A DNA stretch of 64,000 nucleotides from Desulfovibrio sp. (GTDB lineage Bacteria > Desulfobacterota > Desulfovibrionia > Desulfovibrionales > Desulfovibrionaceae): NCBI GenBank assembly GCA_031272715.1, contig JAISTH010000029.1, positions 31,886-95,885 of the forward strand, given 5' to 3'. Made by a program: the position numbers and the translations under genes. Shown in pieces: positions 12,038 to 61,966 of the stretch. Within the stretch, counting starts at the first letter, position 1, and the number at the start of each line of letters is the position of its first letter. The notes beneath the pieces were generated by a model, which worked only from the letters and a program-made list of their open reading frames with translations, did no database searches and had not been told where the DNA came from.

Positions 12038-12085
12038 CGCGGGCCGTTGACGGCCGCTTTACGTTCTCCTTTCTTTAACGTTCCA

Positions 12086-12188: not shown

Positions 12189-12284
12189 CGTCTCCATGCG
12201 TCCGGATCCTTTTGGCGCCAGCCTACATCCATGCCATACACAAGGACCATCAGCTGCGATCATGCAGAACGTCCCATGCAGGCG

Positions 12285-12917
12285 TCACTGCATCAGTTCC
12301 TGAATCATCTTTTCATGCCTTTCTAAACGTTTTTCCCAATCCTCTTTACCGAGATTTTTGAACTCTTCACGTGAGGTATAAAAGTTGCTGCAAATATCCT
12401 GTGCAACTGAGTATGCCTTATCATAGCCAGCTACGTCTGACAGCATGATTGAAGAGAATGTTCCGGCCACGCTTTTGTTTTCATCGAGACTTATCACAAA
12501 TGGCGAGGGCTGGAATTTTACCAGCGCATCAAAGTCGCTCCGCAAAACATCGCAGAAGAGGTATGCATTATTGTTTTCATAAAAAATCACTCCATCAACT
12601 TTAATTTCCCTCAGCACGTCCCATAAAACACATTGCACTTTTTGTCCATGTGCATATTTTTCACGATACTTGTCAATATTTTTATCTTCAAAAACAAGCC
12701 TCACTTTGTCACAGCCAACATTGTACAAAAACATAATGCCTAACCCAGCACACTCGGCATTCACAACATTTAAGACGATGATGAATTCGTCTTTCTGATC
12801 TACCGTGACTTGCCATTCGCCATATTGCTGACTCGTTTGCGTTTGCGCAAAAATAGCCGGCGATGCTGAAAAGAGCAACACAAATACTAGAATTGTGTAA
12901 AAAATCGCCCTTGCCAT
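12285..12917 (-). CDS. Hypothetical secreted protein
   Basis: A 210-residue protein with a strong signal peptide (MARAIFYTILVFVLLFSASP, probable cleavage after IFAQ). The mature region starts YGEWQVTVDQKDEF, faintly like invasion-associated locus B proteins, but without convincing overall similarity. It contains four to five cysteines, so disulfides in the periplasm are likely. The gene is AT-rich compared with its neighbours. It follows the gene at 12930 on the same strand by 12 bases, suggesting an operon of two small secreted proteins. Function unknown. Confidence 0.7.
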   Translation of the reverse strand: MARAIFYTILVFVLLFSASPAIFAQTQTSQQYGEWQVTVDQKDEFIIVLNVVNAECAGLGIMFLYNVGCDKVRLVFEDKNIDKYREKYAHGQKVQCVLWDVLREIKVDGVIFYENNNAYLFCDVLRSDFDALVKFQPSPFVISLDENKSVAGTFSSIMLSDVAGYDKAYSVAQDICSNFYTSREEFKNLGKEDWEKRLERHEKMIQELMQ

Positions 12918-12929
12918 GATATGTCTGGG

Positions 12930-13247
12930 CTAGAAATTCATGCTGCGAAAAATCCTCAGCACTGCTTCACAGTCTTCTGGAGTTTTTCCTTGTGATTGAT
13001 TTTTCGCACTCTGGTACATACCCATCATGAATATACGCTTATAGAAATCCTTCTCATCTCCAAATGTCGTGTTTATCCATGTTTCCGTCTTTGCGATAGG
13101 CGCCTCGACATTCTCGCCGCAAGCAGTGGCCCTTCCGTAAATTGCGGCCAGCGTGGTCAGACGATCGATGTCCGAGCTGTCGTAGGCGATGCTTCCTGAT
13201 GGGAACAAAAGGAATGCGACAAGCGCAAGCAATGACAATATTTTCAT
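12930..13247 (-). CDS. Small hypothetical secreted protein
   Basis: A 105-residue protein with signal peptide MKILSLLALVAFLLFPSGSI and probable cleavage before YDSS. Two cysteines (ATACGEN and PEDCEAV) are placed to form one disulfide. I chose the ATG at 13247, since the track start at 13289 adds residues in front of an otherwise perfect signal peptide; neither start has a strong ribosome binding site. It is the first gene of a two-gene AT-rich unit with 12285-12917. No family recognised. Confidence 0.65.
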   Translation of the reverse strand: MKILSLLALVAFLLFPSGSIAYDSSDIDRLTTLAAIYGRATACGENVEAPIAKTETWINTTFGDEKDFYKRIFMMGMYQSAKNQSQGKTPEDCEAVLRIFRSMNF

Positions 13248-25948: not shown

Positions 25949-27242
25949 CGCCGCTTCACGTCCCGACGCCAAGACCCCGACAGGCGGAACCGGGGAGGGG
26001 GGCGCGTTCCTGGACATGTTCCGGGACGTCCCGGTCCCGGACAGGTGCGTCGCCTGCACCAACTGCTCCCTTGCCTGTCCCGTGACGAGGGTCGCGCCGG
26101 ACTACATGGGGCCCAGGATGATGGGGCCGGTGTACGAGCGATTCCGCAGGGGGGAGGTTCCCCCGACCTCCAGGAAGGCCTTGAAGCTTGCGCTTCACGA
26201 GGACCCCTTCCTCCACTACTGCTCGAACTGCAAGAACTGCGACATCGCCTGCCCCTGCGGCGTTCCCATATCCTCCCTCATCATGGAGGCCCGCGCCTCC
26301 TTCCCGAGATCCCGGCTCACCGCTCTCAGGGACTGGATTCTCGCCCACGGCGAGACCATAGGCCTGCGCACGGCCCTGTTCCCGGCGGCCCTGCGGAACT
26401 TCGCCATGAACCTGTCCCCGACGCGGCACGTGCTCGCCGCGCTGGGGGTGGCCTTCAAGGCCCCGCTGCCCGCCTTCGCCTCGGCGACCTTCAACGGGTT
26501 CCTCGGCTCCCTGCCCCAGCCCGAAGGGCTCGTCCGCAAGGTGGCAGTCTTTCCCGGCTGCTACGTCAACCTCTACGATCACGACTGCGGGAAGGATCTC
26601 GTCTACCTGCTGAACAGGGCCGGATACAGGGTCGTCCCCTCCGGCTTCGTCTGCTGCGGTCTGCCCATGATCGCCAACGGCTTCGCCGGGGACGCCAGGG
26701 CGAACGCCGAAACGAACATGGCGGAACTCGCCAGGCTCGAGAACGACGGCGTTCCCGTGCTGGCTCCGTGCCCCAGCTGCGTCATGACCCTGAACGAAGA
26801 CCGTCCCGCCGCCTGCAAGGACGCCGGCCCGCCGCCCGTCATCGATGCCTGCGCCTTCGTCGCCGGTTGCATCGCCCGGGGGGAACTCGCCTTGCCCAGC
26901 GCCAACCCGATGCGGGTCATGTACCATGCGCCCTGCCATCTCAGGGCCCAGGGCATCGGGTTGCCGGGACTGGATCTTCTCTCGGACGTCCCGGGCCTCG
27001 ATGTCCTCGAGGCCGGGGCCGGGTGCTGCGGCATCAGCGGCAGCTACGGCTTCAAGAAGGAGAAGTACGCCCTCGCCATGTCCATCGGGGAGGAGCTCTT
27101 CGGGCGGGTGAAGGAGAGCGGCGCGGGACTCGTCGTCACCGAATGCGGCACCTGCCGGGTGCAGATCGCCCATGGTACGGGGAAGGCCGTCCGGCATCCC
27201 CTCTCGCTGTTGCGCTCCCTCTTCGCCGACGTCGTCCGCTGA
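25941..27242 (+). CDS. glpC: Anaerobic glycerol-3-phosphate dehydrogenase subunit C
   Basis: A 433-residue iron-sulfur subunit. Two CxxCxxCxxxCP-type [4Fe-4S] motifs (CVACTNCSLACP and CSNCKNCDIACPCG) lie in the first 100 residues, followed by two CCG domains (FVCCGLPMIANG and AGCCGISGSYGF) that bind a further cluster. This subunit anchors GlpAB to the membrane and transfers electrons to quinone. It ends the operon; no glycerol facilitator or kinase gene is adjacent. Confidence 0.95.
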   Translation: MSDAASRPDAKTPTGGTGEGGAFLDMFRDVPVPDRCVACTNCSLACPVTRVAPDYMGPRMMGPVYERFRRGEVPPTSRKALKLALHEDPFLHYCSNCKNCDIACPCGVPISSLIMEARASFPRSRLTALRDWILAHGETIGLRTALFPAALRNFAMNLSPTRHVLAALGVAFKAPLPAFASATFNGFLGSLPQPEGLVRKVAVFPGCYVNLYDHDCGKDLVYLLNRAGYRVVPSGFVCCGLPMIANGFAGDARANAETNMAELARLENDGVPVLAPCPSCVMTLNEDRPAACKDAGPPPVIDACAFVAGCIARGELALPSANPMRVMYHAPCHLRAQGIGLPGLDLLSDVPGLDVLEAGAGCCGISGSYGFKKEKYALAMSIGEELFGRVKESGAGLVVTECGTCRVQIAHGTGKAVRHPLSLLRSLFADVVR

Positions 27243-27282
27243 GGGGAGCGCCTCGGAGGCGCCTGCACAAGCCTGCAAGACG

Positions 27283-27317
27283 GACGCCCGCGCCGGATCC
27301 GGCGCAGGCGTCTTCCT
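27283..27317 (+). terminator. Probable terminator of glpABC
   Basis: GACGCC...GGCGTC encloses CGCGCCGGATCCGGCGCA, a strong stem, followed by the weak T-tract TTCCTTTG about 40 bases after the glpC stop. Confidence 0.5.
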
Positions 27318-27462
27318 TTGCGCAGAGATGCGCCGCTTCGTGCAAGGCACGAGGCCAAGCCCTCAGCCATGATGTGACGTCACGATCCTGACGATGCAAC
27401 GGGATTCCGATTGCGGAGGAATTGCAGGGGAAACGCCCTTTGCGGGCGGCAGGAATGCACGC

Positions 27463-28119
27463 TCAGGAGTATGCGATAGGGACGAGGGTTTTCTTTTTGT
27501 TTGTGTCGGGATTGTATTCTTTTGGCCGATTGATGTTGTCTTTTGAAAAGAAAAACTGATCAGGCCTATGTTTCTGGAAGAATTTGAGCGCAGACAAGTC
27601 CTTGAACTGCAGGATTTCACTCGGAGACTGTATTTTCTCTTTTGATATCTTCAATCTCTCGGCTTCAGCCCTGTTCTCATGCCAGTTTATCAGATCATAT
27701 TCGGGAGTGCCATTCATTCCCGGGGACAGAATTGTCTTGACGACGGCAAGATTTGAATGGTAGGGGATGGATAGTGGGCAGTACCCGACTTTTCTATACA
27801 GCTGTTTGTTTTTATCGGGATCGGGCGCTATTACCTCAGGGACGAACAGATTCCAGAGCTTGCTGTCTCTGCGCACACACCAATAGATGACGAGTGCGTC
27901 CATCGGCTCGCCGTTCTTGGTGACTTTGCACATTTCAAAATGGGACAGATTCTCTATGGCAGAGAACTTGACTTGGGCGAAAGTGACAATGTCGAAATCA
28001 TTGACACCGTATATTCTCTTGTATATCCTGTCGATAGCGTGTTCCGTGTAACAGACTATTCGTTTTTCACCGTTTATCTCGACACTATGCCTGTCCGCCG
28101 AAAAAAAATACCTGTTCAT
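27463..28119 (-). CDS. Hypothetical accessory protein
   Basis: A 218-residue protein in AT-rich DNA. No domain recognised. The N-terminal third (VCYTEHAIDRIYKRIYGVND) and a basic C-terminal third (KFFQKHRPDQFFFSKDNINR) look like an authentic soluble protein. It overlaps the end of the gene at 28085-28693 by 35 bases, so the two form a coupled unit. The composition and lack of core neighbours point to horizontal acquisition. Confidence 0.6.
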   Translation of the reverse strand: MNRYFFSADRHSVEINGEKRIVCYTEHAIDRIYKRIYGVNDFDIVTFAQVKFSAIENLSHFEMCKVTKNGEPMDALVIYWCVRRDSKLWNLFVPEVIAPDPDKNKQLYRKVGYCPLSIPYHSNLAVVKTILSPGMNGTPEYDLINWHENRAEAERLKISKEKIQSPSEILQFKDLSALKFFQKHRPDQFFFSKDNINRPKEYNPDTNKKKTLVPIAYS

Positions 28120-28693
28120 CGCCGCTCATGACATTGTACAGCTTTTTGAATTCGATATAGTAGTTTTTTTGATTGTTTGTCATTCCGATGTCGAAAAGAT
28201 AGTCATGCAGGAAGAACTTCTTACCACGCAGATCAAAAATTCTATTTATGACATAATTCAGAAAGTAGTCATGATAGTAATTGACCACCCTATGGAAGAG
28301 TCTGTCATCATCCTCTTTACTTATTTCCTCATCGGAACAGAGCAATTTTTCCTGATGCTCGGAAAAGAAATCCGTTATTGGGTGTCCGTACAAGGATTTC
28401 GTTTTCCTGATTTCTTCTATGTACCAATCAAATGCAGGACCAATGCTGTATTTTCGTATCAGCTTGAAGTATTCCCTCTCATAGGTTGCACAATCATCGT
28501 ATGAAAACTTAGTGAGACAGTCTAGGACTGTATCAACATATTCTTGATCCATATCATTTTCATCGTAAGGGACGATGACGATCTCCGGGTAGATGCTTTT
28601 CTCGCTAGCGTCCAACCGGGACGATCGCTTGGCCTCTCTTTTGGCCTTCTTGCGCTCGCGCTTTTTCTGCAAGTCTTTTTGCTTGAGAGACAT
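28085..28693 (-). CDS. Hypothetical accessory protein with lysine/arginine-rich N terminus
   Basis: A 202-residue protein. The first ~25 residues are strongly basic (LKQKDLQKKRERKKAKREAK), probably a helical nucleic-acid-binding or coiled segment, followed by an acidic, tyrosine-rich body. GGAAAAGGGCGAC precedes the ATG. It is the first gene of an overlapping pair with 27463-28119. No family recognised; the codon use is AT-rich and unlike glpC. Confidence 0.6.
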   Translation of the reverse strand: MSLKQKDLQKKRERKKAKREAKRSSRLDASEKSIYPEIVIVPYDENDMDQEYVDTVLDCLTKFSYDDCATYEREYFKLIRKYSIGPAFDWYIEEIRKTKSLYGHPITDFFSEHQEKLLCSDEEISKEDDDRLFHRVVNYYHDYFLNYVINRIFDLRGKKFFLHDYLFDIGMTNNQKNYYIEFKKLYNVMSGDEQVFFFGGQA

Positions 28694-29448
28694 TTGTCGC
28701 CCTTTTCCAAATCAGGGAGTTGCAGTGTCTGAAATGGGATCGCCCCCGGGAATCCGGCCATGCGCCGCTGCCGAAGGGCCTGGGGCGAGATGGGCTCCGG
28801 GCCGTCCCGGTTCCCGCAGGATGCGCCGGGAAGTCCGGACATCCAGACCCGAGAGAACCCTGTACTTGATTGTCTGCGCCAACGCAACCGAAGGATTTGG
28901 CGGTGACGGGCCGGGATGATCCGCCGGCGGCGCTGCCGGCGCCATTTCCCCAAAATGGTGTCCGGGGACATGCCGTGAGGCCATGGCGACGATGCCCGCC
29001 GCCGCACCCCGTCATGGATGCCGGCCGGTCGCACGGCCGGCGTGTCCATGGCGACTCCGGTGCCGCGCCCATCAAGGGGGCCGTCCCGCAAGGCGAACGC
29101 CGGCGGATTGCCGGAATGCACGCAGGCGGACCATGGAAGATTGTCCCTCAAGACCGCAATGCGCAAGAGGACGGGATCAGCCGGCGTCCCAGGGCATGCC
29201 TCGACGGGAGTCACGTCTGCGGTCACGCCGCCTGCCGTGCCGCCCCGCCTAGATTCCCGTCTTGCCTCGGCATGTTCACCGATGCCGACAGGGCCCAATG
29301 GACGGCCCAAGGCGCCGACGATGGCACTTGCACGGGAACGGGCACACCACTTGACAGACAGTCCCGGATGCTGGATATCCACGTCAAAGGGGCGCGGGCG
29401 CCGACATCGCCCGATGGTCCGCCACCCCCTTCCCTCGAGGAGACCGCC
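28694..29448. other. GC-rich spacer without supported genes
   Basis: About 755 bases carrying only shadow-like frames on both strands. I recognised no domain, RNA or terminator. The composition is that of the host chromosome, in contrast to the AT-rich DNA on either side. Confidence 0.35.
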
Positions 29449-29559
29449 ATGTACGAGATACCGAACAATCTGCCCATCGGCGAGCAGAACTTCGAAACCA
29501 TCCGCACGGATGGGTTGCTGTATGTCGACAAGACCTCGTACATCCGCCGCAACAAATGA
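29449..29559 (+). pseudogene. Truncated AAA-ATPase-like (DUF1703-type) gene start
   Basis: A good ribosome binding site (GAGGAG) and ATG begin MYEIPNNLPIGEQNFETIRT, followed by DGLLYVDKTSYIRR. This is the typical first 35 residues of the AAA-ATPase-like family that also occurs at 1-703 (compare YVDKTQFI). The frame ends at codon 37, exactly where the DNA changes from GC-rich to AT-rich. The P-loop and everything after it are missing, so this is a gene stub left by an insertion or deletion. Confidence 0.7.
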
Positions 29560-29560
29560 C

Positions 29561-30100
29561 CTAACAATATATCAATCCGTGTTTGATAATTTGAAGCTTG
29601 CTCTTGCTAGCGACACAATATGGCTAAATGGCATACTTGAAGCAAAAATGAGCGGAAGCACGATTAAAGATTTTAGTTACATGCTTAAGGATATGGACGG
29701 AAATGGGATTCAAGAACTTTTCCTCTATGATGGTGGCAGCAAATTGCTAATTGCTGTATTCACAATTGCCAATAATAAAGTCGAATTATTACAAGAATTT
29801 TGGTCAAAAAATTCTGGCTACCTTACAGTTAACGACCAAATTCTAACCGATTGGACTAATGGCACTGATAATTCCCGAGTGTCGGTATTTTCCTTTGCCA
29901 ATATGGTGACTGCAACTTTCTTGATACAAGTAGATGGATATGAAGTAAGGACGGACGAAAAGGGAACAGTTTCATATATCAAGTTTGATTACACTGGTGA
30001 AAATGAGGATATTTTAATGAATTCCGCGGAATTGGATACATTCAATAAAAATCCAAATTATATGGAAAATAAAAATCTTCATTTATTGCAAATCCCTTAA
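29561..30100 (+). pseudogene. 3' fragment of a foreign gene, hypothetical
   Basis: The frame has no proper start: it is open through the junction at about 29556 and runs to a TAA at 30100. The AT-rich portion encodes about 180 residues beginning LTIYQSVFDNLKLAL. YMLKDMDGNGIQELFLYDGG resembles the DxDGDGxxEL motif of calcium-binding/VCBS-like secreted proteins. Since the 5' end is fused to the stub of an AAA-ATPase gene, I infer a truncated import. An internal ATG at 29648 could still give 150 residues. Confidence 0.45.
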
Positions 30101-30319
30101 TTAAACGCTTCCCAGTTATGCATTCACGAGCTACTATCTTATTGATTAAAACCTTCAATAGGATTATAAAAACACTGCAACATTAGATAATGTTATTTCA
30201 ATTGGCTCATGAAATGAATAAAGACACTATCGGTAATAGATTCTTAACTCAGAGTCTTAAATTATCGATAAACCGTCTACCTCATAACTATACGAGTAGA
30301 CAAAAGATAGGTAAAACTC

Positions 30320-30658
30320 ATGCAATCAAAAACTTCAGATTCAATTTCACTGATGACAAGCATATCTCCTCATTGGTCTGGCTTTGACTTTGCTATATAC
30401 GCTTCCGAAAAGCCTGACAATAACGACGCAGACAATATTTTTGTTAAAGTCGGAGTTGACAGGAGCCGAATAAATGATGGATTTTTCATTCTCTTTGACG
30501 ATGACATGACGACTGAAGGAAATGTGTTTCTTGACGACAAGAAGCTTAAGGATCTGAAGGGATGGCTCAAAAGTAACATTGAGGCTTTTACCTTGTACTG
30601 GGAGAAGGAGATAGAGTTTGATGAGTTCTTGAGCATGCTGAGTAGGTTCCAGGGATGA
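30320..30658 (+). CDS. Small hypothetical protein
   Basis: A 112-residue acidic protein in AT-rich DNA (core WSGFDFAIYASEKPDNNDAD, helical C terminus KLKDLKGWLKSNIEAFTLYW). I recognise no family; the size and charge recall immunity or anti-toxin proteins, but that is speculation. AGGT lies before the ATG at acceptable distance. It ends the AT-rich insert; GC-rich sequence resumes immediately after. Confidence 0.5.
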   Translation: MQSKTSDSISLMTSISPHWSGFDFAIYASEKPDNNDADNIFVKVGVDRSRINDGFFILFDDDMTTEGNVFLDDKKLKDLKGWLKSNIEAFTLYWEKEIEFDEFLSMLSRFQG

Positions 30659-31473
30659 TCATCCGTTTTCGCGTGACATGAAAATCGCTGAAACCCTTGC
30701 CATCGGCATCCGTTCCCGTGCGCCTCGATGGGGATTCCCCGCCATGCGCGCCGCCTCGGGGCACCACTGGCCCATCCTCGCGACGGGATCCGGCCCGGTC
30801 TTCCTCCGCGGTTGCGTACCGTATGCCCCTCGCCACTGCGAGGCTTGTCCGGATCGCCGGAAGACGGCCTGCCCGCTCAGGGAACCGACCTCCCCTGCCG
30901 CAATGCGCCGTCCGTTGCGTTGTTGCGGATCGAGGCGACGCCCTCCCTGAGCGGAGTTCCCTGTCGATGGGGCCACGGCCGTCCGAAAAAACCACCCATC
31001 CAAACATCCGGTTCCACGTCCGCCGCATCCATGGGACGCAACACTGGGCCCGGCCGACCGGTTCGAGGAACGTCCCCCGCCTTTTCGAGATGCCGCGAAC
31101 GCCCCGCGTCCTTGCCCCACATCCCTCGCGGCCCCGTCGCCTCTCCCCCAGGGTGCCGGTCGACGACATGGCGACAACTTGTTGATTTTGATCCCCGTCT
31201 CGCACTTGCGCACGGCACGGAAATGGAGTACATTTTTCCCGCCTTGGATGCGGAAACGCCATGCCCCACGAAAACCGCCGCCTTGTCGGGCGCGGCCGGG
31301 GCTTGCCAAAGGCGCGCTTTCGCCGGTTCCGGAACCTCCGGGAACGGTGCGGGCGTGGCTTTGTCCCCATTCAGGGCCGCGGATTTCCCGCGGGTTCGCC
31401 GGCGAGGATCGGCCGATGCCAAGGCATCGCCCCCAAAGCGCTCCGGACCCGGAAATCCCCATGGTTGCAGCGT
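30659..31473. other. Gene-free GC-rich spacer upstream of tRNA-Val
   Basis: About 815 bases. Frames exist on both strands (for example 30588-31370 minus) but lack domains and plausible starts. No terminator, repeat or RNA was recognised. Confidence 0.35.
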
Positions 31474-44260: not shown

Positions 44261-44593
44261 CGGGCGCGTCGGCGTCCCGGATAGCCGCGGCGCCCGGGGC
44301 CGTCACGGGCGGGAGACGGGCGGAAGCGGGAGGCGGCGACGCCCTCCGGCATGGGGCGCATCGCCCATCCCTTGCCCGAGTCCCTGTCTTGCCGCACGCC
44401 CCGGCCGTGGGACTTGACGATCCGGAGCGCCGGCCGTTCAGATGCGCACGTGCCCGTTTTGCCCGGCTCACTTCCATGCATGTTTCCAGCCTGTCACACA
44501 CTGCGTTCCGCTCTATCAGCACATTGCACCAGCTGAATCTTCTTGAAATCCTCAAATGCAGATGGCGTCTTTTGAAAACAAGGAGTCGTGGCC
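44261..44593. other. Transition from chromosome to AT-rich island
   Basis: About 330 bases without a supported gene. The sequence changes from GC-rich to AT-rich near 44480, which I take as the left edge of the accessory island. No terminator or direct repeat was identified. Confidence 0.35.
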
Positions 44594-45232
44594 ATGGATA
44601 TACTTAAATATCTCTTTGGCAAAAAAGAGGACAACAAACTGCTGCACGATGCATTTGAGCACGTCATCAAAATTCTTGATGACGATGAAGTGCAGATGCA
44701 GAACACGGTTCCGATGCTCAGAGAAGTAATTCGTAAAAGGCCTGCCGTTGACATGATCAAGGGTGGAAAAGGACCATTCGGCCTAGTTGAGACAAACCCG
44801 ATTCCAGTCAATGGGCCAATCGGCCAGATATCGTATTTATCAAAGCTTCTGACAGACGACAGTAACGAACAGATGCTTTTCCACAGGATCGGAGCCATCC
44901 ACACTGTTGACGTATTTGAAGCGGTGACTTTTGATTCTAATAAATGGTTTATACTTTATGTAGATTTCTACCACCCTCGACGATCAAGATTAACGCCTGA
45001 AGGTTTTCATTTTTCAGAAATTCCCGCATATTTTTCTGGATTTCATGTATACTGTAAAGATTTTCCATACAATTTCAAGAAGATAAAGGAAGAGGTACGA
45101 AGCGACTTTTCCATTGCATACATACCTTTCGACTACATATCAGAACAGCTTGCCAGAAAGATATACCAGAGACCTGAAAGTCATACGGAAAAGCTAATGG
45201 CCATCAATAGCCGTCTTACAAGCCGGTCGTAG
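44594..45232 (+). CDS. Hypothetical protein of the accessory island
   Basis: A 212-residue protein. I chose the ATG at 44594, nine bases after AAGGAG; the track uses GTG 44588. There is no signal peptide. The central segment NPIPVNGPIGQISYLSKL followed by GAIHTVDVFEAVTFDSNKWF and YHPRRSRLTPEGF has the look of a conserved family, but I cannot name it. First gene of the AT-rich island, followed by a long non-coding stretch. Confidence 0.6.
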   Translation: MDILKYLFGKKEDNKLLHDAFEHVIKILDDDEVQMQNTVPMLREVIRKRPAVDMIKGGKGPFGLVETNPIPVNGPIGQISYLSKLLTDDSNEQMLFHRIGAIHTVDVFEAVTFDSNKWFILYVDFYHPRRSRLTPEGFHFSEIPAYFSGFHVYCKDFPYNFKKIKEEVRSDFSIAYIPFDYISEQLARKIYQRPESHTEKLMAINSRLTSRS

Positions 45233-45597
45233 TTCTACTAGAAATATTGTAGTTGTTGGACTGCATAAGCTATTATTAGGACATTAGATAAATTCGCCAG
45301 AATAGATCAAAGTAACATATTGACACTGATATTTTATAGTATTTTTGAAATTCTTTATATAATATAACAACTACAGGCAAATACTTTCTCACATATAGAT
45401 AGTCGCATAATTATTTGAAGGTCTGATCGGATGTTCATCGCCACCCGCAACCATGCGACGGACTGGAGTTCAAATAAATATGCGACCATCTATATAAACA
45501 AATATTTATTACAGCCCTGCTGTCGTTCTGCATTGTTAAATTGTTGAGAATCTCCCAGAAAAAATAATTTTCATTTTATATTATTGGAGTCCAGCCC
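45233..45597. other. AT-rich non-coding stretch
   Basis: 365 bases of very AT-rich sequence; apart from the inverted-repeat element listed separately, only the ribosome binding site TTGGAG of the next gene is apparent. Confidence 0.5.
45394..45494. repeat. 101-bp element with 26-bp terminal inverted repeats
   Basis: TATAGATAGTCGCATAATTA at 45394 and the reverse complement of 45469-45494 match at 24 of 26 positions. The 49-bp centre is GC-richer than the arms and holds another ATGCGAC, the core of the arms. It may be a MITE-like element, a protein-binding site or a long RNA hairpin. Confidence 0.65.
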
Positions 45598-46821
45598 ATG
45601 GATACCTATATTCCACGCATGCTAGAACACAGCGTTAAAAAGTTGATGAAATTTTTCCCCGTAACTGCGATCATCGGCGCAAGGCAGTGCGGTAAGTCTT
45701 CTATCGCGAAAAATATTTGCAACATGTACAATGATTATCTCTACCTCGACTTGGAAGACGAAAATGATTTAAATAAAATAACAGGGAATATCCGCGCTAA
45801 GCAGTTTCTTTCTGAAAATATGGACAAATTGATTGTCATTGATGAAGTACAACTTCGCCCTGAGCTTTTCCCCACCCTAAGAGTATTAGCAGACCAGATA
45901 GCAAATACTCGTGATAAAAATTTCGATATATACCATCCCGCTCGATTCCTCATTCTCGGGTCCGCATCGCCAATGCTGTTGAGACAGTCGGGGGAGACTT
46001 TGGCAGGCAGAATTACTTACGTGCGCCTCACTACTTTACTTGTCACTGAAATACCCGACTGTGATCTGAAAAAATATTTTATACGCGGAAGTTTCCCAGT
46101 AAGCTACCTTGCAAGCAGCGACGAAAGCTCCTTTGTCTGGAGGAAAAGTTATATGTCAGCATTTTTACATAGAGACCTTGAAAAATGGGGGGATTTGGCA
46201 GAAGGGACAATGGAGAGACTTTGGCACATGTTGGTGACAGTAAATGGTCAAGAAACAAATCACGAAAGAGCTCTCAGCTCCCTTAAGATACCGTTTAAAG
46301 AAGCGCAAAATTATTTTGATACATTAAAGAGTTTATTTCTTATTGATTCAATTCCTCAATTTACGAAAAATCCATTTGCAAGTATTTGCAAGACACCAAA
46401 AACATACATAACTGACCATGGCTTAATTGCAAATGAATTTGAAATAAAATCATTTGACGATCTCAGAAGACCAACTAATGCAGTAACTTATGGGACAATG
46501 TGGGAACAGATCGTGCTTAACCACCTAAGGGCATGGTACCCTAGACCCAATGGCGAAAACATTTTCTTCTATCGTGACAAAGACGGAAACGAAATTGACT
46601 TTATCCTAACAAAAAATCGTATGCCCTTTGCAATAGAATGCAAAATTTCGTCAAATGCTTGTATGTCATCCGGGACATATGCGGCGATGGAAAAACTTGG
46701 CATACCTGAAGAACACGCATTTATAGTTACGCCTTTTCAAAGTTCTGAGAAATCTAATACTATTACGTTGCCTGAATTGCATGCAAAGCTAGAGGAGATT
46801 CTCAATGCACCGATAGAGTAA
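45598..46821 (+). CDS. ATP-binding protein, AAA_14/DUF4143 type
   Basis: A 407-residue protein. N-terminal ATPase: Walker A IIGARQCGKSSIAK near residue 26-36 and Walker B KLIVIDEVQLRPELFPTLR near 80, then the ARFLILGSASP sensor region. The C-terminal DUF4143 domain has the nuclease-like signature NGENIFFYRDKDGNEIDFIL with IECK (D...ExK arrangement). Such proteins are widespread in anaerobes and lack an agreed function; some are suggested to act in defence or mobility. A paralogue follows directly downstream. Confidence 0.85.
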   Translation: MDTYIPRMLEHSVKKLMKFFPVTAIIGARQCGKSSIAKNICNMYNDYLYLDLEDENDLNKITGNIRAKQFLSENMDKLIVIDEVQLRPELFPTLRVLADQIANTRDKNFDIYHPARFLILGSASPMLLRQSGETLAGRITYVRLTTLLVTEIPDCDLKKYFIRGSFPVSYLASSDESSFVWRKSYMSAFLHRDLEKWGDLAEGTMERLWHMLVTVNGQETNHERALSSLKIPFKEAQNYFDTLKSLFLIDSIPQFTKNPFASICKTPKTYITDHGLIANEFEIKSFDDLRRPTNAVTYGTMWEQIVLNHLRAWYPRPNGENIFFYRDKDGNEIDFILTKNRMPFAIECKISSNACMSSGTYAAMEKLGIPEEHAFIVTPFQSSEKSNTITLPELHAKLEEILNAPIE

Positions 46822-46904
46822 ATAAGCTGTCCCACAAATACAATGCTACACATGGCAATTTTATATATTTTACAAGCGTGGCGCATCCTATGGGAACAAA
46901 CCCC

Positions 46905-48127
46905 ATGAACATTCACATTCCGAGAGATCAAGAACGCAACATAGTGAGAGCCTTGAGATCTAATCCTGTCACCGCGATTATTGGTGCAAGCAAGTGTGGT
47001 AAATCCTATATTGCAAAGCACGTCTGCGATACATATGAAAACTTCTTGTATCTTGACTTGCAAGACGTAGATGACTTAGAAAAGATCCTTGGTGACCGCC
47101 AGGCAAAAAGATTTCTCTCAGACAGTATGGATAAATTAATTATAATTGATGAGATTCAGCTTCGTCCTGAGCTTTTCCCCACACTAAGGGTGTTGGCAGA
47201 CAAAATTGCACACTCACGGGGCGAAAGATTTAAGATAACACACCCTGCACGCTTTCTCATTATAGGGTCTATATCGCCAATGTTGTGGAGACAGGAGAAG
47301 GAGTCTTTAACAGGAAGAATTGCATACGAGCGCCTCACTACACTCTTGATTACTGAAATTCCTGATTGCGACATGAAAAAATATTTCATACGAGGTGGTT
47401 TCCCACAAAGTTATCTCGCAAACAGTGATGATACCTCAATTAGATGGAAGAAGGATTACATTACAAATCTCCTACTTAATGATCTAAAAAATGGGGGAAT
47501 TTTGATATTGATATACTTGATGAACTTTGGCACAAACTTGTAGCAGGTAACGGCAAGAAAATAAGTTCTTGCGGATTGTCTCGTTCGCTTAAGATACAAC
47601 AACAAGAATGCGATCAGTGCATTGACATATTAAAATACTTATTCATTCTTGATTCAATCCCCAAATATACAAATACGCACTTTTACAGCACCAGCGATAC
47701 GAAAAAATTCTATGTCACTGACTCAAGCTTTGTAACAAATGAACTTGGCATAACGTCATTTGAAAACCTCGGATCACCTGCTAATGTGAATACATATGCA
47801 TCTTTATGGGAATCGATCGTCCTCAATCACCTAAGGGCATGGTATCCACGACTCAACGGTGAAAATGTATTCTTCTATCGTGACAAAATTGGCAATGAAA
47901 TTGACTTTATCCTCACAAGAAGACTTATGTCTATTGCAATTGAATGTAAGACATCCTCAAATGCAACGATGTCAGCAGGGACATATGCTGCGATGGAAAA
48001 ACTTGACATACCCAAGGAACACGGATTTATTGTTACGCCTTTCCCAAGTCCAAAGAATAAGAAGACTGTAACATTGCCCGAATTACATACAAAACTAGAA
48101 GAGATTTTCAATGATCCGACACAATAA
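46905..48127 (+). pseudogene. Frameshifted paralogue of the AAA_14/DUF4143 ATPase
   Basis: Two track ORFs (46878-47543 and 47576-48127) are the N- and C-terminal parts of one gene closely related to 45598-46821: VTAIIGASKCGKSYIAK and KLIIIDEIQLRPELFPTLR, then NGENVFFYRDKIGNEIDFIL. The frame breaks at the run AAAAAAT-GGGGG (47486-47496); adding one A restores KKWGNFDIDILDELWHKLV across the gap, which matches the paralogue's DLEKWGDLAEGTMERLWHML. I start it at MNIHIPRD by comparison with the paralogue. Either a pseudogene, a homopolymer sequencing error or a phase-variable gene. Confidence 0.75.
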
Positions 48128-48214: not shown

Positions 48215-49270
48215 ATGCATGATAATGCTACCTCAGGATGCCGAAAAAGCCCCTTCCCGAAGCGGGAGGCGTTCCAATGGCCGAAGTCCCTTGCGGAGTG
48301 TGCGTGGATCCACGCAGAGGAGAACGATGGACATTTCGTCGCTCTCCGGGAGTTCGCCTTGGCGTTCTACACGACGAAACACATAGATCGTCAGGGGATG
48401 CTCGCCGAGGAACCCATAGCCACTGGGGACGCCGTGTATGACGCTCTTCTTGGCGGCATGGCGGAGCATTTCTCTTGGGAATACGAGCTGACGCCTCCGA
48501 AATGGACGGAAGACGAAAAGAGATTCCTCACTGAACCGTATTATTTCGCAATGGAAGGATTGCCGAAGTACTGGGACGAGATGCGACGGGAGTCCCCACT
48601 CCCTTACGTCCGAAGGAACCTCTTTCCGGGAGCCGATCCATTCTCCCGTCCGGGAAAATACACTGACATGAAACTCGCAGGAGAACCAGAGCTTTTCTTT
48701 GCGAGAATCAGGACGAAGGAACCACGCGTGCTGATCCCGGCATGCTGGAAGACCATAGTAAAGACCTTTGCAGACGAGGTACAACCACTCGTCGAAGGAG
48801 AGTTCGCCCATGTGACCGAACGAGTTCCTAAAAGAGGAACGGTTCCAGAATGCTATTATCTTTCCATGGCGATCAACGAACTTAAATTCCGAGGCGGAGA
48901 TTCCGGATGGAAGACGGCGATGGGCCTCATCGACAGGATGGAGATGGCTTTCTACGATGAGGTCATCTCATGTCTGCGTTCGCCTCTCTCAAACGACAAT
49001 ACGGCATCTAAGACGACGAACGCCATAGTCTCCGATGGATGGATGCGCCTCAAGGATGTGACGGATAAACTGCAGACATTTCTTGAATCTGAACTCCCAG
49101 ACGTGGCTAGGCGATGCCCGAGACGCCCTGGCGTTTGCGTCAATGATGGGCTCTATTTCACTGCAGCCATTGATGGGCTTAAGAAACTGCATGGCGATAC
49201 TGGAAATTCGATTGCCATGAAATTTATCGATGAGCTTGAGTCTGGCGGTTGGCGTAACATTACTATTTAA
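48215..49270 (+). CDS. Hypothetical protein with an internal duplicated domain
   Basis: A 351-residue protein; the ATG at 48215 is preferred to the track's TTG. Residues ~20-110 form an unidentified N-terminal domain (WIHAEENDGHFVALREFALA). Two copies of a ~70-residue module follow: one around WKTIVKTFADEVQPLVEGEF ... RVPKR ... YYLSMAINELKFRGGDSG, the other WMRLKDVTDKLQTFLESELP ... RCPRR ... YFTAAIDGLKKLHGDTG. The next gene starts five bases later, so the two belong together. No known family; a nucleotidyltransferase partner makes a toxin-antitoxin or defence role conceivable. Confidence 0.65.
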   Translation: MHDNATSGCRKSPFPKREAFQWPKSLAECAWIHAEENDGHFVALREFALAFYTTKHIDRQGMLAEEPIATGDAVYDALLGGMAEHFSWEYELTPPKWTEDEKRFLTEPYYFAMEGLPKYWDEMRRESPLPYVRRNLFPGADPFSRPGKYTDMKLAGEPELFFARIRTKEPRVLIPACWKTIVKTFADEVQPLVEGEFAHVTERVPKRGTVPECYYLSMAINELKFRGGDSGWKTAMGLIDRMEMAFYDEVISCLRSPLSNDNTASKTTNAIVSDGWMRLKDVTDKLQTFLESELPDVARRCPRRPGVCVNDGLYFTAAIDGLKKLHGDTGNSIAMKFIDELESGGWRNITI

Positions 49271-49275
49271 AGAAC

Positions 49276-50184
49276 TTGGGCTTGTATGTTACAAAGTTAT
49301 TTAAGAACTTGTTTTTTAGCGAAAAACTGTCTTACGATTATATCGTAAAAGGTTTAAATGAAGTCAATGAATTATGTAAATATCATCGCTTACGGCTTAA
49401 CGCAACGATTGTTGGTTCAGCGGCAATTATATTACAATACAAAAACAATTATCTTGGGATGACTGACGATGTAGACTTTTCGACCAATGATGACGTGTAT
49501 ACTCAAAGATTCATTTACAGCATGTCAAAATTAATTGCAAAAAAGTACGGATGGAAAGATAATTGGTTTAATAATTGTTTTGATTCATTTTATGTCACTT
49601 TGCACAGCAAAAAACTGTCTATCCTACAAAATTCAGAAGATGATGAATATGGCTTGTTTATTGATGTAGTCGTTGAGGATCAGCTTCTGGCGCTTAAATG
49701 TGATGCTCTCAGAAAGGGACAAGGACGACACGATTATGAAGATGCAATTTTCCTCATGCAGGAGACTGGAATTATATCTAGGGAGGATTTGCTTGAAAAC
49801 ATGAGGAAGTATTTTGGAGATCAATATATGAACAAAGACACTAAAATACACGGCAAGATCGATAATCTGCTCGACTGTCTTGCGGAGTGGGGCGCAATGT
49901 CCGCCCAGCCACCAGACGACACGGAGGCTGCGGCCATGTGGTTCCTTGACCAGGGCGTTCTTGATCCGCGCACAAAGGAGCAGGTGTTTGAGAAGATATG
50001 GGGAGTCAATGCAGGGCCGAAGATACGGAATACGCTCTCAGCGCTCCTAGGCGCTTATCGAGAAAAGGAAATCGACATCAATGCTGCGACTGAATGGGCG
50101 AAGCAATTCCATGTCGGATTCCAGAAGGTGCTCCGGCCTACGCAAGCTGGGCATCGCGAGGACGTGGTCTTCGACGATTTCTAG
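49276..50184 (+). CDS. Nucleotidyltransferase-like protein
   Basis: A 302-residue protein. The segment LNATIVGSAAIILQYKNNYL followed by MTDDVDFST has the GSx(n)DxD arrangement of nucleotidyltransferase folds (as in AbiEii/MenT and DUF6036 proteins), and IDVVVEDQLLALKCDALRKG continues that pattern. The probable start is a TTG at 49276, coupled to the gene ending at 49270; no strong ribosome binding site is seen. The first ~195 codons are AT-rich while the last ~108 (from about 49860) are GC-rich and code for a different-looking helical domain, so the gene may be chimeric. Confidence 0.6.
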   Translation: MGLYVTKLFKNLFFSEKLSYDYIVKGLNEVNELCKYHRLRLNATIVGSAAIILQYKNNYLGMTDDVDFSTNDDVYTQRFIYSMSKLIAKKYGWKDNWFNNCFDSFYVTLHSKKLSILQNSEDDEYGLFIDVVVEDQLLALKCDALRKGQGRHDYEDAIFLMQETGIISREDLLENMRKYFGDQYMNKDTKIHGKIDNLLDCLAEWGAMSAQPPDDTEAAAMWFLDQGVLDPRTKEQVFEKIWGVNAGPKIRNTLSALLGAYREKEIDINAATEWAKQFHVGFQKVLRPTQAGHREDVVFDDF

Positions 50185-57390: not shown

Positions 57391-59039
57391 TGGCGGACGG
57401 CGCGTCCTCGACGCCGGGAGGCGATGCCGGCGCCACGTCCCGAGGGGTTTTCGGCAGGCGGCAGCGCATGGGTGCGGCCGCCCTGCTCCTTGCCTGCAGT
57501 GCGGTCCTGTCCAGACTGATGGGACTCGTGCGGGACAAGGTCATCTCCTGGCAGTTCGGCGCCGGCGCCGAGTCCGATCTCTACTTCGCCGCCTTCGTCG
57601 TCCCGGACGTCATAGGCTACCTTCTGGCCGGCGGCTTCATGTCCATCACGATCATCCCGCTACTGGCGGAGCGGTTCCGGGAGGACGAGGAGGACGCATG
57701 GCGGTTCTTCTCCTGCGTCTTCACGTGGATGGCCACGCTGTCCCTCCTCTTCACCCTCGTCTGCATCCTGTGCGCCGACCGTCTCGCCGTGGTCACGGCT
57801 CCGGGCTTCTCCCCGCAGCAGCAGGAGCGTCTGGCCTTCTTCATGCGGGTGGTGCTGCCCGCCCAGGTCTTCTTCCTGTCCGGGGCCTGCTTCACCGCGA
57901 TCCTCTATCTGCGGCGGCAGTTCGCGGTGCCCGCCGTGGCGCCCCTCCTCTACAACGGCGGCATCATCGCCTGCGGCGTCCTCCTTCCCATGATCGGACT
58001 CGTGCAGGGCATGACGGGATACTGCATCGGAGTGACGCTGGGGGCGGGCCTCGGGGCCTTCATCCTGCCCATGACAGTGGCCGCACGGGGAGGGCTGCAT
58101 CTGCGACCCCGATGGAGCCATCCCCTTCTCGGGAAGTTCTTCAAGACCGCCCTGCCTTTGATGCTCGGCCAGACGGTGATCATGCTGGACGAGCAGTTCC
58201 TGCGGATCTTCGGCAGTCTCGCGGGGGAGGGGACGGTGAGTCTGCTCAACTACGCCAGACGCATAGCCCAGGCCCCCGTGGGACTCGTTGGGCAGGCGGC
58301 GGCGGCGGCATCCTATCCGTTTCTGGTGGGGCTGCTGGCGGCCAAGGAGAGGGAGCGGTTCATCGAGACCCTGGCGTTGGCGCTGAAGACGACGGTATCT
58401 TTCATCGTCCCCTGCGCCATGTGCATGACGGCGCTGTCGCTGCCGCTGGTGAGCCTGATCTTCCAGGGGGGGCGATTCGGGCCGGCGGACACGATCGCCA
58501 CGGTTCCCCTGACCTGTCTGCTCCTTGCGCCCACGCCCTTCTGGGTCGCGTACATGGTGCTGGTGCGGGGCTATTACGCACAGGGGGACACCGTGACCCC
58601 GGCGGTGGCGGGCACGGTCATGACGCTTGTGACCCTTCCCTGCTACGCCTTGGCCGTGAGGTACGGGGGATGGGCGATAGCGCTGGTTTCGGCGACGAGC
58701 GTTCCCTGCTACGTGCTGTGGCTGATGGGGATCTGGCGGCGCAGGCAGGGCGGAGGGGCCTTCAAGGGGTTGGGGACGCTGGTCCTGCGGTCCGTCGGCT
58801 GTTCGCTGCCGGGAGGGGTGGCGAGCTGGTGGGTGTCGGAATGGTTGCGGGCGAATCTCGGGCTTTCTGCGCTGCCGTTGTCCTGCGTCTGCCTGGTTGT
58901 GGGGAGCGTGGCCTTCGCCGTATGTTTCCTGCCGATGATACTGGTCTTCGAGCCGCATATGAAGGGCGTGCTCTTGCAGGGACTCGGCCGGTTCGGCCGT
59001 AGATGGAGGCAGGAGCCAGCTGATGGGGGCGGGAGTTGA
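57387..59039 (+). CDS. murJ: Lipid II flippase MurJ
   Basis: A 550-residue membrane protein with about 14 segments that moves lipid II across the inner membrane for cell-wall synthesis. Recognised from SAVLSRLMGLVRDKVISWQF near the N terminus, AGGFMSITIIPLLAERFRED, LNYARRIAQAPVGLVGQAAA and LVRGYYAQGDTVTPAVAG. The ATG at 57387 overlaps the RNase stop codon, indicating coupling; the track start at 57258 lies within the RNase gene. C-terminal residues are basic and cytoplasmic. Confidence 0.94.
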   Translation: MMADGASSTPGGDAGATSRGVFGRRQRMGAAALLLACSAVLSRLMGLVRDKVISWQFGAGAESDLYFAAFVVPDVIGYLLAGGFMSITIIPLLAERFREDEEDAWRFFSCVFTWMATLSLLFTLVCILCADRLAVVTAPGFSPQQQERLAFFMRVVLPAQVFFLSGACFTAILYLRRQFAVPAVAPLLYNGGIIACGVLLPMIGLVQGMTGYCIGVTLGAGLGAFILPMTVAARGGLHLRPRWSHPLLGKFFKTALPLMLGQTVIMLDEQFLRIFGSLAGEGTVSLLNYARRIAQAPVGLVGQAAAAASYPFLVGLLAAKERERFIETLALALKTTVSFIVPCAMCMTALSLPLVSLIFQGGRFGPADTIATVPLTCLLLAPTPFWVAYMVLVRGYYAQGDTVTPAVAGTVMTLVTLPCYALAVRYGGWAIALVSATSVPCYVLWLMGIWRRRQGGGAFKGLGTLVLRSVGCSLPGGVASWWVSEWLRANLGLSALPLSCVCLVVGSVAFAVCFLPMILVFEPHMKGVLLQGLGRFGRRWRQEPADGGGS

Positions 59040-59701
59040 TGCCGGACAATGAGGAAATGACGAGAGAAGGCTGAAGACAGTATCTTGGCGTTCAGATCAT
59101 CCCAATTGCCAATCCTTCGCTAGTCATTCGGCCATTTCTCAAAGTTTTTCTTATTTCGACGCCATTCCTACAATTCTTCCAGCTGTCTGCAGAGCTGCCT
59201 CAGCCTCTTCTTCAATATTTTCAGATTGATATTTTTGGCCTTCTTGTGCATCGCCCTCATCGATTTCTCGTGAGGCCATATTCTGCGCTAGCTTGGCTGC
59301 CCTCTCCTTGCGCATCTTCACCAGCAGGAAATACACCCAGAGAACCGTGATCGGGAAGAGGACGAGGCAAATGTCAGCGACATCTGAATTTATGTTAAGT
59401 TTTTAGCAAATTCGGAGAAATACTCAACGCTGAACGTATACGCATGATCGCGCCGAATACGAGTATCGATTTTAATTCAAATTTAGCTCTTGTTATGTCA
59501 GCCTCATCTAAGCACAAAAGAATTTATGTTGATTTATCTGAATCCGAAAAGAAAATAACATCTGCAAAAAACTGAAGGAGATGTCGGGCTGGCATCATTG
59601 AATATCTTTGCCATCTTTGAACCTCGCATCGGATGCCTTTGACCCGCAGGACAAGAATCAACGTTGCCCACCGAAGGGCACGCCGTGCATCCTCCGTCAC
59701 G
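59040..59701. other. AT-rich spacer between murJ and nrdJ
   Basis: About 660 bases, AT-richer than the flanks. The minus frame 59151-59402 reads VADICLVLFPITVLWVYFLL, then KMRKERAAKLAQN, a membrane segment plus acidic tail, but it has no ATG and opens directly after a stop; it may be a decayed small membrane-protein gene. Nothing else is recognised. Confidence 0.4.
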
Positions 59702-61966
59702 CTACCCGCACCGCGAGAACCCGCAGGTCGCGCACATGAGGCACCCTTCCTGGAAGACCAAAGGCTCACCGCACTCGGGGCAGCGCTTCTCGTCCAGATC
59801 GGAAATCTCCTTGAGATGCTCGTCCTGAAGGTAGCGTTTTTCCAGCACCCAGGCGATGGCATCCGGGATGGAAAGCAGCAGCCCCTTGCCCCGGAAGACC
59901 GGGTGTTCCCCGCCTATCCCCTTGATCTGGGCGACGACGTCCCTGACATGGACGCCGCTGCGCAGCGCCAGGGACACCAGCCGTCCTATGGCCTCCGCCT
60001 TGGCCGTGATGGACCGGCCGGACTTGCCGATGGTGGCGAAGACCTCGAAGGGCCTGCCATCCACCTCGTTCACCGTGAGATACATGGCCCCGAGGCCCGT
60101 CTGCACCTTCTGGGTGAACCCCTCGACCACGTCCGGACGCTTGCGCACCGAGGAGACGCGGCCCTGGGGTTGCGCCTGCCCCGCGCCGTCCATCTTCGCC
60201 TGCCCCTCGCCGGTGGCCAGCACCTGCTGGCTCTTGCACCCGTCCCGGTAGACCGTGACCCCCTTGCACCCTTCCTTGTAGGCCAGCCAGTAGATGTCGC
60301 GGATGTCCTTCTCCGTGGCGGCGTTGGGCAGGTTCACGGTCTTGGAGACGGCGTTGTCGGTGTGGCGCTGGAAGGCGGCCTGCATGCGCAGATGCCAGAC
60401 GGGCTCGATGTCCATGGCCGTCACGAAGACCCGGCGCAGGTCCAGGGGCAGGAAATCCATGTCCTGGATGGATCCCCTGGCCACCACCGCATCCATCAGT
60501 TCGTGATCCGCCAGGCCCTCCCGGGCGAGCGCGGCCTCGAAGTAGGGATTGACCTCGGTCAGACGTTCCCCATCCAGAATGTTTCTCGTGAAACATAGCG
60601 CAAACAGGGGTTCGACCCCCGAGGAGCACCCGGCGATGATGGAAAGCGTCCCCGTGGGGGCGATGGTCGTCACCGTGGCGTTGCGGTAGGGCCCCTGCTT
60701 GCGGGCGCCGTAGGTGGATGTCGGATAGGCCGGGAAGGGGCCCCGCTCCTGCGCCAGCTGCGCCGACGCCTTGTGCCCCTCCGTCTGGATGAAGCCCATG
60801 ATCTTCTCGGCGACGGCGAGACCCGCCTCGGAATTGTACGGCACCTCGAGCTGGTACAGCAGGTCCGCGAACCCCATCACCCCGAGACCGATCTTCCGGT
60901 TGCGCGTGACGGTCTCCGTGATGCGGTCCAGAGGGAAGCGGGATGCGTCGATGACGTTGTCGAGGAACCGCACCGACAGGAACACCGCCCTGCGCAACGC
61001 CTCCCAGTCCACGCCCTGATCGCTGGGATCCTTGAGATGGTTGAATCCCGGGACGTGGAAGGCGGCGAGATTGATGGAGCCCAGGTTGCAGGCCTCGAAG
61101 GGCAGCAGCGGCTGTTCGCCGCAGGGGTTGGTGGACTCGATCTCCCCCTGGTCCGGGGTGGGGTTGTCCCTGTTGATCCTGTCCAGGAAGACGATGCCCG
61201 GATCCCCGGACTCCCATGCCTTCTTCACCAGCAGATCGAAGACTTCCCTGGCCCGGAGCCGCTCCCGGACCTCCCCGGTGTTCGGCGCCCGCAGTTCGTA
61301 CTCCTGATCCTTCTCCACGGCCTGCATGAAGACTTCGGTGAGCCCCACGGACAGGTTGAAGTTGTTGAACTCCCCTTCCTTCTCCTTTGCCCTGATGAAA
61401 CGGATGATGTCGGGATGGTCCACGCGCAGGATGCCCATGTTCGCGCCCCGGCGGGTCCCTCCCTGCTTGATCTGTTCGGTGGCCGTGTTGAATATCCGCA
61501 GGAAGGAAACGGGACCCGAGGCCACGCCGCCCGTGGATCCCACACGGCTCTCCCTCGGACGGAGACGGGAGAAGGAGAAGCCCGTGCCGCCGCCGGACTT
61601 GTGGATCATGGCGGCGAACTTCACCGCGTCGAAGATCTCCTCGATGGAGTCTCCCACGGGAAGCACGAAGCATGCGGAGAGCTGCCCCAGGTCGGAGCCG
61701 GCGTTCATCAGCGTCGGTGAGTTCGGGAGGAACCTGCGGCTCGTCATCAGGTCGTAGAAGTCCACGGCCAACCGGGCGGGGTCGCAGGAGGATCGGTCGT
61801 ACTTCGCCTCCTCCCCGGCTATGCTTGCGGCCACCCGCCAGAACATCTCCTTGGGGGTCTCCACGCATTCGTTGTCGGATCCCTTGCGCAGATAGCGCTT
61901 CTTCAGGACGACTTCGGTGTTCGGGGTGATTTCTGGCTCGTGGAGATCCGGGGGCATGGGAATCAT
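59702..61966 (-). CDS. nrdJ: Vitamin B12-dependent (class II) ribonucleotide reductase
   Basis: A 754-residue adenosylcobalamin-dependent enzyme reducing ribonucleotides, usable with or without oxygen. Evidence: FLPNSPTLMNAGSDLGQLSA with the first active-site cysteine, STNPCGEQPLLPFEACNLGS with the radical cysteine, TIAPTGTLSIIAGCSSGVEP, and a C-terminal zinc ribbon CPECGEP...CATCGFSRCG. The length and the zinc ribbon match the class II enzymes of delta-proteobacteria. Weak ribosome binding site. No B12 riboswitch was recognised upstream. Confidence 0.95.
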   Translation of the reverse strand: MIPMPPDLHEPEITPNTEVVLKKRYLRKGSDNECVETPKEMFWRVAASIAGEEAKYDRSSCDPARLAVDFYDLMTSRRFLPNSPTLMNAGSDLGQLSACFVLPVGDSIEEIFDAVKFAAMIHKSGGGTGFSFSRLRPRESRVGSTGGVASGPVSFLRIFNTATEQIKQGGTRRGANMGILRVDHPDIIRFIRAKEKEGEFNNFNLSVGLTEVFMQAVEKDQEYELRAPNTGEVRERLRAREVFDLLVKKAWESGDPGIVFLDRINRDNPTPDQGEIESTNPCGEQPLLPFEACNLGSINLAAFHVPGFNHLKDPSDQGVDWEALRRAVFLSVRFLDNVIDASRFPLDRITETVTRNRKIGLGVMGFADLLYQLEVPYNSEAGLAVAEKIMGFIQTEGHKASAQLAQERGPFPAYPTSTYGARKQGPYRNATVTTIAPTGTLSIIAGCSSGVEPLFALCFTRNILDGERLTEVNPYFEAALAREGLADHELMDAVVARGSIQDMDFLPLDLRRVFVTAMDIEPVWHLRMQAAFQRHTDNAVSKTVNLPNAATEKDIRDIYWLAYKEGCKGVTVYRDGCKSQQVLATGEGQAKMDGAGQAQPQGRVSSVRKRPDVVEGFTQKVQTGLGAMYLTVNEVDGRPFEVFATIGKSGRSITAKAEAIGRLVSLALRSGVHVRDVVAQIKGIGGEHPVFRGKGLLLSIPDAIAWVLEKRYLQDEHLKEISDLDEKRCPECGEPLVFQEGCLMCATCGFSRCG

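What the first reader, a model, noticed from the sequence alone, without database searches (positions are those of the whole stretch)
48215..50184. Uncharacterised two-gene module with a nucleotidyltransferase-like partner
A protein with a duplicated ~70-residue module is followed five bases later by a protein with a GSx(n)DxD nucleotidyltransferase pattern. The pair lies in an AT-rich island with two P-loop ATPases. Two-gene nucleotidyltransferase units (AbiE, MNT/HEPN) are toxin-antitoxin or anti-phage systems, and the upstream partner here is not a recognised antitoxin. It is the best candidate in the window for an undescribed system.
Basis: partly seen in the sequence, partly recalled or inferred. 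Interest (0 to 1): 0.65.

Follow-up and report, generated by a model that had tools for sequence, protein, structure and literature searches.

The report
MenT/AbiEii-like nucleotidyltransferase with unnamed partner
Two adjacent Desulfovibrio genes look like a toxin-antitoxin pair: an enzyme related to the tRNA-poisoning toxin MenT1 of the tuberculosis bacterium, and a helper protein from a family that none of the databases searched has a name for but that accompanies this enzyme in distant bacteria.

Summary
48215-49270 encodes a 351-aa protein with a real duplication (residues 172-251 and 270-351). Five bases later, 49276-50184 encodes a 302-aa nucleotidyltransferase (NTase). The pair is not a one-off: the genome has two more copies. 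A partner family, defined by the first ~155 residues of the upstream protein and without a hit in Pfam, NCBIfam, PHROGs, PADLOC or PDB, sits beside the same NTase subfamily in Desulfobacterota, Pseudomonadota and Actinomycetota. Both gene orders occur, and in mycobacterial plasmids the two are fused. The duplicated module and the NTase's C-terminal tail are lineage-specific additions. The NTase's relatives pass Pfam DUF6036 or AbiEii cut-offs. The best solved match is MenT1, a tRNA-extending toxin of M. tuberculosis. The MenT1 catalytic positions are conserved (window D65, K141, D156), as is the MenT1 autophosphorylation site (T63). Best reading: a MenAT/AbiE-like toxin-antitoxin pair with an undescribed antitoxin family; toxicity is untested. 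The two nearby ATPases are not part of it, and the NTase is not a new kind. Novelty: a new variant of a known kind; the new part is the partner family.

The parts
48215..49270 (+). Upstream gene: partner (proposed antitoxin), 351 aa
   Evidence: homologous pairs
48275..48682 (+). Conserved partner domain (about residues 21-156), the only part shared with distant relatives
   Evidence: profile A4, E 1.4e-54 (the window is one of its rows); alignments
48728..48967 (+). First copy of the ~80-residue helical module (residues 172-251)
49022..49267 (+). Second copy of the module (residues 270-351)
   Evidence: module not found in 60 relatives
49276..50184 (+). Downstream gene: nucleotidyltransferase (proposed toxin), 302 aa, TTG start
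49297..49896 (+). NTase domain; T63 (49462-49464), D65 (49468-49470), D67 (49474-49476), K141 (49696-49698), D156 (49741-49743)
49876..50181 (+). C-terminal tail of the NTase (about residues 201-302), accessory; boundary approximate
   Evidence: absent from C93 and distant relatives; cut off by a TAG in C85; free-standing copy at C76

Best explanation
A two-gene toxin-antitoxin unit of the MenAT/AbiE kind. The downstream protein is a nucleotidyltransferase toxin which, like MenT1, probably adds nucleotides to the acceptor end of tRNAs (or another RNA) and stops growth. The upstream protein, through its conserved first ~155 residues, binds the NTase and holds it inactive, either by covering the active site or, as MenA1 does for MenT1, by making the NTase phosphorylate its own active-site Thr/Ser (T63). 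The tandem helical module on the antitoxin and the tail on the toxin are later, lineage-specific additions. Shown here: the pair, its conservation, both gene orders, the fusion, homology to MenT1, and conservation of the catalytic and phosphoacceptor residues. Inferred: which gene is the toxin, the tRNA target (about 0.45 likely), the way of inhibition, and any role in island or plasmid maintenance or phage defence.
For: Homology: the profile of 15 partner-linked NTases matches MenT1 (PDB 8an4, E 7.6e-7) best of all solved chains. The predicted structure's best Foldseek match is also MenT1/MenAT1 (prob 0.75-0.92, though E only 0.06-0.09); ANT(2'') and MenT3 also appear. Some members pass the Pfam cut-off for DUF6036 (P0009 26.6 bits, L020 30.4, L023 23.8; cut-off 23.6) or AbiEii (L034 23.0; cut-off 22.5). 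Catalytic set: MenT1 T39, D41, K137, D152 align with window T63, D65, K141, D156; D, K, D invariant in 15 of 15, T63 is Thr (13) or Ser (2). D41A, K137A, D152A abolish MenT1 toxicity (PMC10435456); T39 is the MenA1-induced phosphorylation site (PMC11375011). Linkage: partner-only queries found loci that then carried the NTase at G147, G240, G433, Methylobacterium (L034), G521, G703, G539, M. intracellulare (L037), Curtobacterium (L041); the reverse query added G172 and G328:C257, both with the partner. Fusion in one uninterrupted frame in L038, L044, L048, as expected of proteins that bind. Tight coupling, e.g. a 4-base overlap in L034 and a 5-base gap in the window. Asymmetry: partners without a detectable NTase (L022, L031, L039, L040, L047, L059) and broken or partial NTases beside partners (L018 frameshift; remnants at L036, L042, L043) occur, whereas the five high-scoring NTases outside this genome all have a partner; this suits NTase = toxin.
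Against: No toxicity or neutralisation data exist for any member. The partner resembles no known antitoxin and its model is poor (mean pLDDT 61; no significant fold match). Fusion of partner and NTase in one chain is unusual for a toxin-antitoxin pair. The window's NTase alone is only a weak Pfam hit (DUF6036 E 0.017, below cut-off), so its assignment rests on its relatives. hhalign of the family profile against one AbiEii of this genome found no significant match. The solitary-partner argument rests on few loci, and several models were built partly from loci that are counted.
Confidence: 0.66

Rival explanations
1. Reversed roles, as in HEPN/MNT: the partner is the toxin and the NTase is an antitoxin that silences it by attaching nucleotides to it.
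For: Two-gene NTase units of this sort exist (HEPN/MNT; PMC7641770, seen). The partner model is all-helical, as HEPN proteins are.
Against: No conserved RX4-6H motif and no column with His in 6 or more of 10 partner sequences. Sequence and fold matches go to MenT toxins ahead of MNT antitoxins. Partners occur without an NTase, which a toxin should not tolerate.
Confidence: 0.12
2. Not a toxin-antitoxin pair: a regulated RNA- or small-molecule-modifying NTase (such as an antibiotic nucleotidyltransferase) whose partner is a structural or activating subunit.
For: ANT(2'') is among the fold matches. The mycobacterial fusions put both domains in one polypeptide, natural for an activating subunit.
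Against: MenT1 is the better match by sequence and fold, and the Thr/Ser phosphoacceptor is kept. The genes sit on plasmids, with toxin-antitoxin genes near L038, L039 and L047, and NTase copies are often broken or missing.
Confidence: 0.17
3. Decaying remnants: the window copy is intact in sequence but no longer functional, for example through the poor TTG start of the NTase.
For: C85 has an in-frame TAG, C45 only a fragment, and the neighbouring second ATPase is frameshifted. There is no ATG at the start of the window NTase.
Against: Both window frames are complete and silent changes dominate between copies; catalytic residues are all present.
Confidence: 0.05

Closest known systems
MenAT1 (Rv0078B-Rv0078A), M. 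tuberculosis
   Same: NTase homologous over the fold; Thr-x-Asp-x-Asp, catalytic Lys and second Asp all conserved; a small partner is encoded beside it; no DNA-binding domain recognised in the typical partner.
   Different: MenA1 is a 68-aa protein without detectable relation to this ~130-155-aa partner family; here the gene order varies and fusions exist.
AbiE (AbiEi/AbiEii, type IV toxin-antitoxin, DUF1814)
   Same: NTase with hG[G/S]...DhD, a motif III Lys and a motif IV Asp; bicistronic; AbiE cassettes are present in this same genome at C76.
   Different: The partner is not AbiEi (no Pfam hit; hhalign with a local AbiEi not significant); the NTase is shorter (~180 aa) and mostly below the AbiEii cut-off.
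DUF6036 (PF19502) nucleotidyltransferases
   Same: Several linked NTases pass the family cut-off; fused mycobacterial forms are annotated under this name.
   Different: Further DUF6036 hits in G147 and G240 score poorly or not at all with the linked subfamily and lack this partner; no paper in the library mentions DUF6036.
HEPN/MNT (type VII toxin-antitoxin)
   Same: Two-gene unit of an NTase and a helical partner.
   Different: No conserved RX4-6H in the partner; the NTase's best matches are MenT toxins, not MNT antitoxins.

Membership tests
AbiEii/MenT/DUF6036 NTase superfamily (the NTase itself) | hG[G/S] ... DxD (motifs I-II) | tested here: met
   G47-S48...D65-x-D67; G, D, D invariant in 15 of 15
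AbiEii/MenT/DUF6036 NTase superfamily (the NTase itself) | Motif III Lys and motif IV Asp | tested here: met
   K141 and D156 invariant; aligned with MenT1 K137, D152
AbiEii/MenT/DUF6036 NTase superfamily (the NTase itself) | Ser/Thr at the autophosphorylation position | tested here: met
   T63; Thr 13, Ser 2 of 15
AbiEii/MenT/DUF6036 NTase superfamily (the NTase itself) | Score over the Pfam DUF6036 or AbiEii cut-off | tested here: inconclusive
   Window protein 15.4 bits against a cut-off of 23.6 (not met alone); relatives P0009, L020, L023, L034 meet one or the other
AbiE type IV toxin-antitoxin | AbiEi antitoxin (winged HTH plus AbiEi C-terminal domain) as partner | tested here: not met
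   No Pfam hit for the partner at E<=1; hhalign with a local AbiEi not significant. Not filed as AbiE.
MenAT1 | MenA1-like antitoxin | tested here: not met
   The partner profile finds no MenA1 chain in the PDB at E<=1
HEPN/MNT | Conserved RX4-6H motif in the partner | tested here: not met
Toxin-antitoxin system in general | Conserved adjacency of the two genes across distant taxa | tested here: met
   Desulfobacterota, Pseudomonadota, Actinomycetota, both gene orders, fusions
Toxin-antitoxin system in general | One gene toxic, the other neutralises it | not testable with these tools
   needs expression assays
Known anti-phage defence system | Match to a described defence model | tested here: not met
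   no PADLOC hit for either protein; a phage phenotype is not testable here

The most novel reading that the evidence does not exclude
The partner domain founds a new, widespread antitoxin family that neutralises MenT-like NTases. Because it occurs both as a separate gene on either side and fused in cis, it works by triggering autophosphorylation of the active-site Thr/Ser and not by being degraded and replaced. That would extend the MenA1/MenA3 mechanism to a third, unrelated antitoxin type.
Probability: 0.25. Interest if true: 0.7.

Novelty: new variant of a known kind. Interest (0 to 1): 0.5.

Why it matters
A small, recurrent protein family with no name in the databases searched would be assigned a function (antitoxin of MenT-like NTases). 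NTases now annotated as 'unknown function (DUF6036)', including those on M. intracellulare and M. kansasii plasmids, would become testable toxins. Because the Thr/Ser phosphoacceptor is kept while the antitoxin is unrelated to MenA1 and MenA3, the family is a clean test of whether antitoxin-induced autophosphorylation is general, a question raised in PMC11375011.

Tried and rejected
Metabolic family for the upstream gene: no hit in Pfam, NCBIfam or PADLOC at E<=1, nor in PHROGs at E<=0.1. AbiEi partner: rejected. HEPN partner: motif absent. The ATPases as part of the unit: rejected, because C85 has no such gene nearby; one possible coincidence, L024, has a degraded partner between two ATPase genes. 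Phage origin: no relatives in phage records or viral contigs by the searches made (the pattern-based viral scans are insensitive). Module or tail as the conserved core: rejected. AF2 of the partner with three rows: too poor for a fold assignment. hhalign of the NTase profile with a single AbiEii: not significant. Rfam in the region: nothing. Promoter/terminator scan: not clearly above shuffles. HTH in the mycobacterial extension: only a weak hit, so not claimed.

Full report
What is there. Two intact frames on the + strand, 48215-49270 (351 aa) and 49276-50184 (302 aa), lie five bases apart in a 5-6 kb AT-rich island of a 65-70% G+C genome. The window lies in a 2.99-Mb draft assembly of 101 contigs. 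The upstream protein has a tandem duplication (z = 15).

Paralogues. The same genome holds a second arrangement on C85 (partner 69%, NTase 60% identical; an in-frame TAG removes the NTase tail but spares the catalytic domain) and a third on C93 (partner with one module, NTase of 198 aa without the tail, overlapping genes). A degraded partner fragment lies on C45. Silent changes dominate between the C10 and C85 copies.

A partner family. Weak hits in two congeners (G034, G024) turned out to be ~140-155-aa proteins that match only the first ~155 residues of the upstream protein, and each lies directly behind a DUF6036-like NTase. A five-row profile of this domain (A3) then found, without any reference to the NTase, loci in G147, G240, G433, G328 (two), G138 and Methylobacterium planeticum. 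Four of these seven have the NTase next door. A ten-row profile (A4) in 399 genomes of the phylum of M. planeticum found three more pairs and one solitary partner. Partner-only protein searches of plasmids gave complete NTases beside or fused to the partner in M. intracellulare, Mycolicibacterium and Curtobacterium; weak NTase matches or remnants beside it in Rhizobium, Methylorubrum, Microvirga and Azospirillum (the last with a TnpB gene in between); and no NTase in Clavibacter and Hydrogenophilus. The reverse query with the NTase profile gave two new high-scoring NTases in Desulfobacterota (G172, G328:C257), both followed by the partner; the low-scoring, more distant NTases lack it. Gene order is partner-first in this genome, G433 and the Actinomycetota, and NTase-first elsewhere. 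In three mycobacterial plasmids one frame of 359-370 aa holds an N-terminal extension, the partner domain and the NTase without a stop. The extension looks HTH-like by eye but has only one weak HTH_23 hit (E 0.066).

What the NTase is. The linked NTases form a subfamily between DUF6036 and AbiEii: some members pass one cut-off, some the other, and the window protein neither. Their profile hits MenT1 best among all PDB chains (E 7.6e-7). The AF2 model, fair only over residues ~20-200, also ranks MenT1 first, without reaching significance. T39, D41, K137 and D152 of MenT1 correspond to T63, D65, K141 and D156; all are conserved in the 15 sequences, with Ser replacing Thr in two. A W-x-N pair (W97, N99) is an additional invariant of the subfamily.

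Mechanism. By analogy with MenT1/MenT3 the NTase would extend tRNA acceptor ends and block translation (PMC10435456). The partner would neutralise it by binding, possibly by inducing phosphorylation of T63 as MenA1 does for MenT1 T39 (PMC11375011). Adjacency in both orders, short gaps or overlaps, and cis fusion support binding. The loss pattern (partners present where NTases are absent or broken) supports NTase = toxin. None of this is a toxicity test. The tandem helical module was found only in this genome, and the tail almost only (one marginal hit in G078), so they tune the local version and are not the core.

What it is not. It is not AbiE (no AbiEi), not MenAT1 (different antitoxin), not HEPN/MNT by motif, and not a known defence system by PADLOC. 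It works like the MenAT/AbiE group; membership is claimed only for the NTase.

Limits. Profiles were partly built from loci later counted; the independent counts are those named above. The literature library lacks most subscription papers, so an earlier description of the partner cannot be excluded; DUF6036 itself occurs in none of the 5.39 million papers held.

Noticed in passing
window 45385-45503: 119-bp near-palindromic element (27-bp arms, 93% complementary) with six further near-full-length copies (73-83% identical) in the genome: a MITE/REP-like repeat just upstream of the first ATPase gene.
   Followed up: partly
window 45598-46821 and 46878-48127: Two tandem AAA_14+DUF4143 ATPase genes (62% aa identity); the second is split by a frameshift near 47500. 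Both match the PADLOC candidate group PDC-S01.
   Followed up: partly
window 44588-45232: 214-aa protein with no Pfam, NCBIfam or PADLOC match at the edge of the AT-rich island.
   Followed up: no
L015 (G000:C76:20000-33000): An array of AbiEi/AbiEii cassettes, one intact and others broken, with a free-standing relative of the window NTase's C-terminal tail (L015 6326-6652, minus strand) right behind one AbiEii: a tail module shared between two NTase toxin families.
   Followed up: partly
L043 (Azospirillum ramasamyi plasmid): A TnpB-family gene lies between an NTase remnant and the partner gene.
   Followed up: no
L038, L044, L048: Mycobacterial plasmid proteins annotated 'DUF6036 family nucleotidyltransferase' (or hypothetical, L048) are extension-partner-NTase fusions; an internal ATG at the junction (MPEP/MAQP) could also allow separate translation.
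   Followed up: partly
window 12001-13000, 27001-31000, 59001-60000: Further AT-rich stretches (0.45-0.56 G+C) in a 0.65 G+C background, likely other acquired islands.
   Followed up: no
L024 (G138): A degraded partner domain lies between two AAA-type ATPase genes of the same general kind as in the window; possibly coincidence.
   Followed up: no
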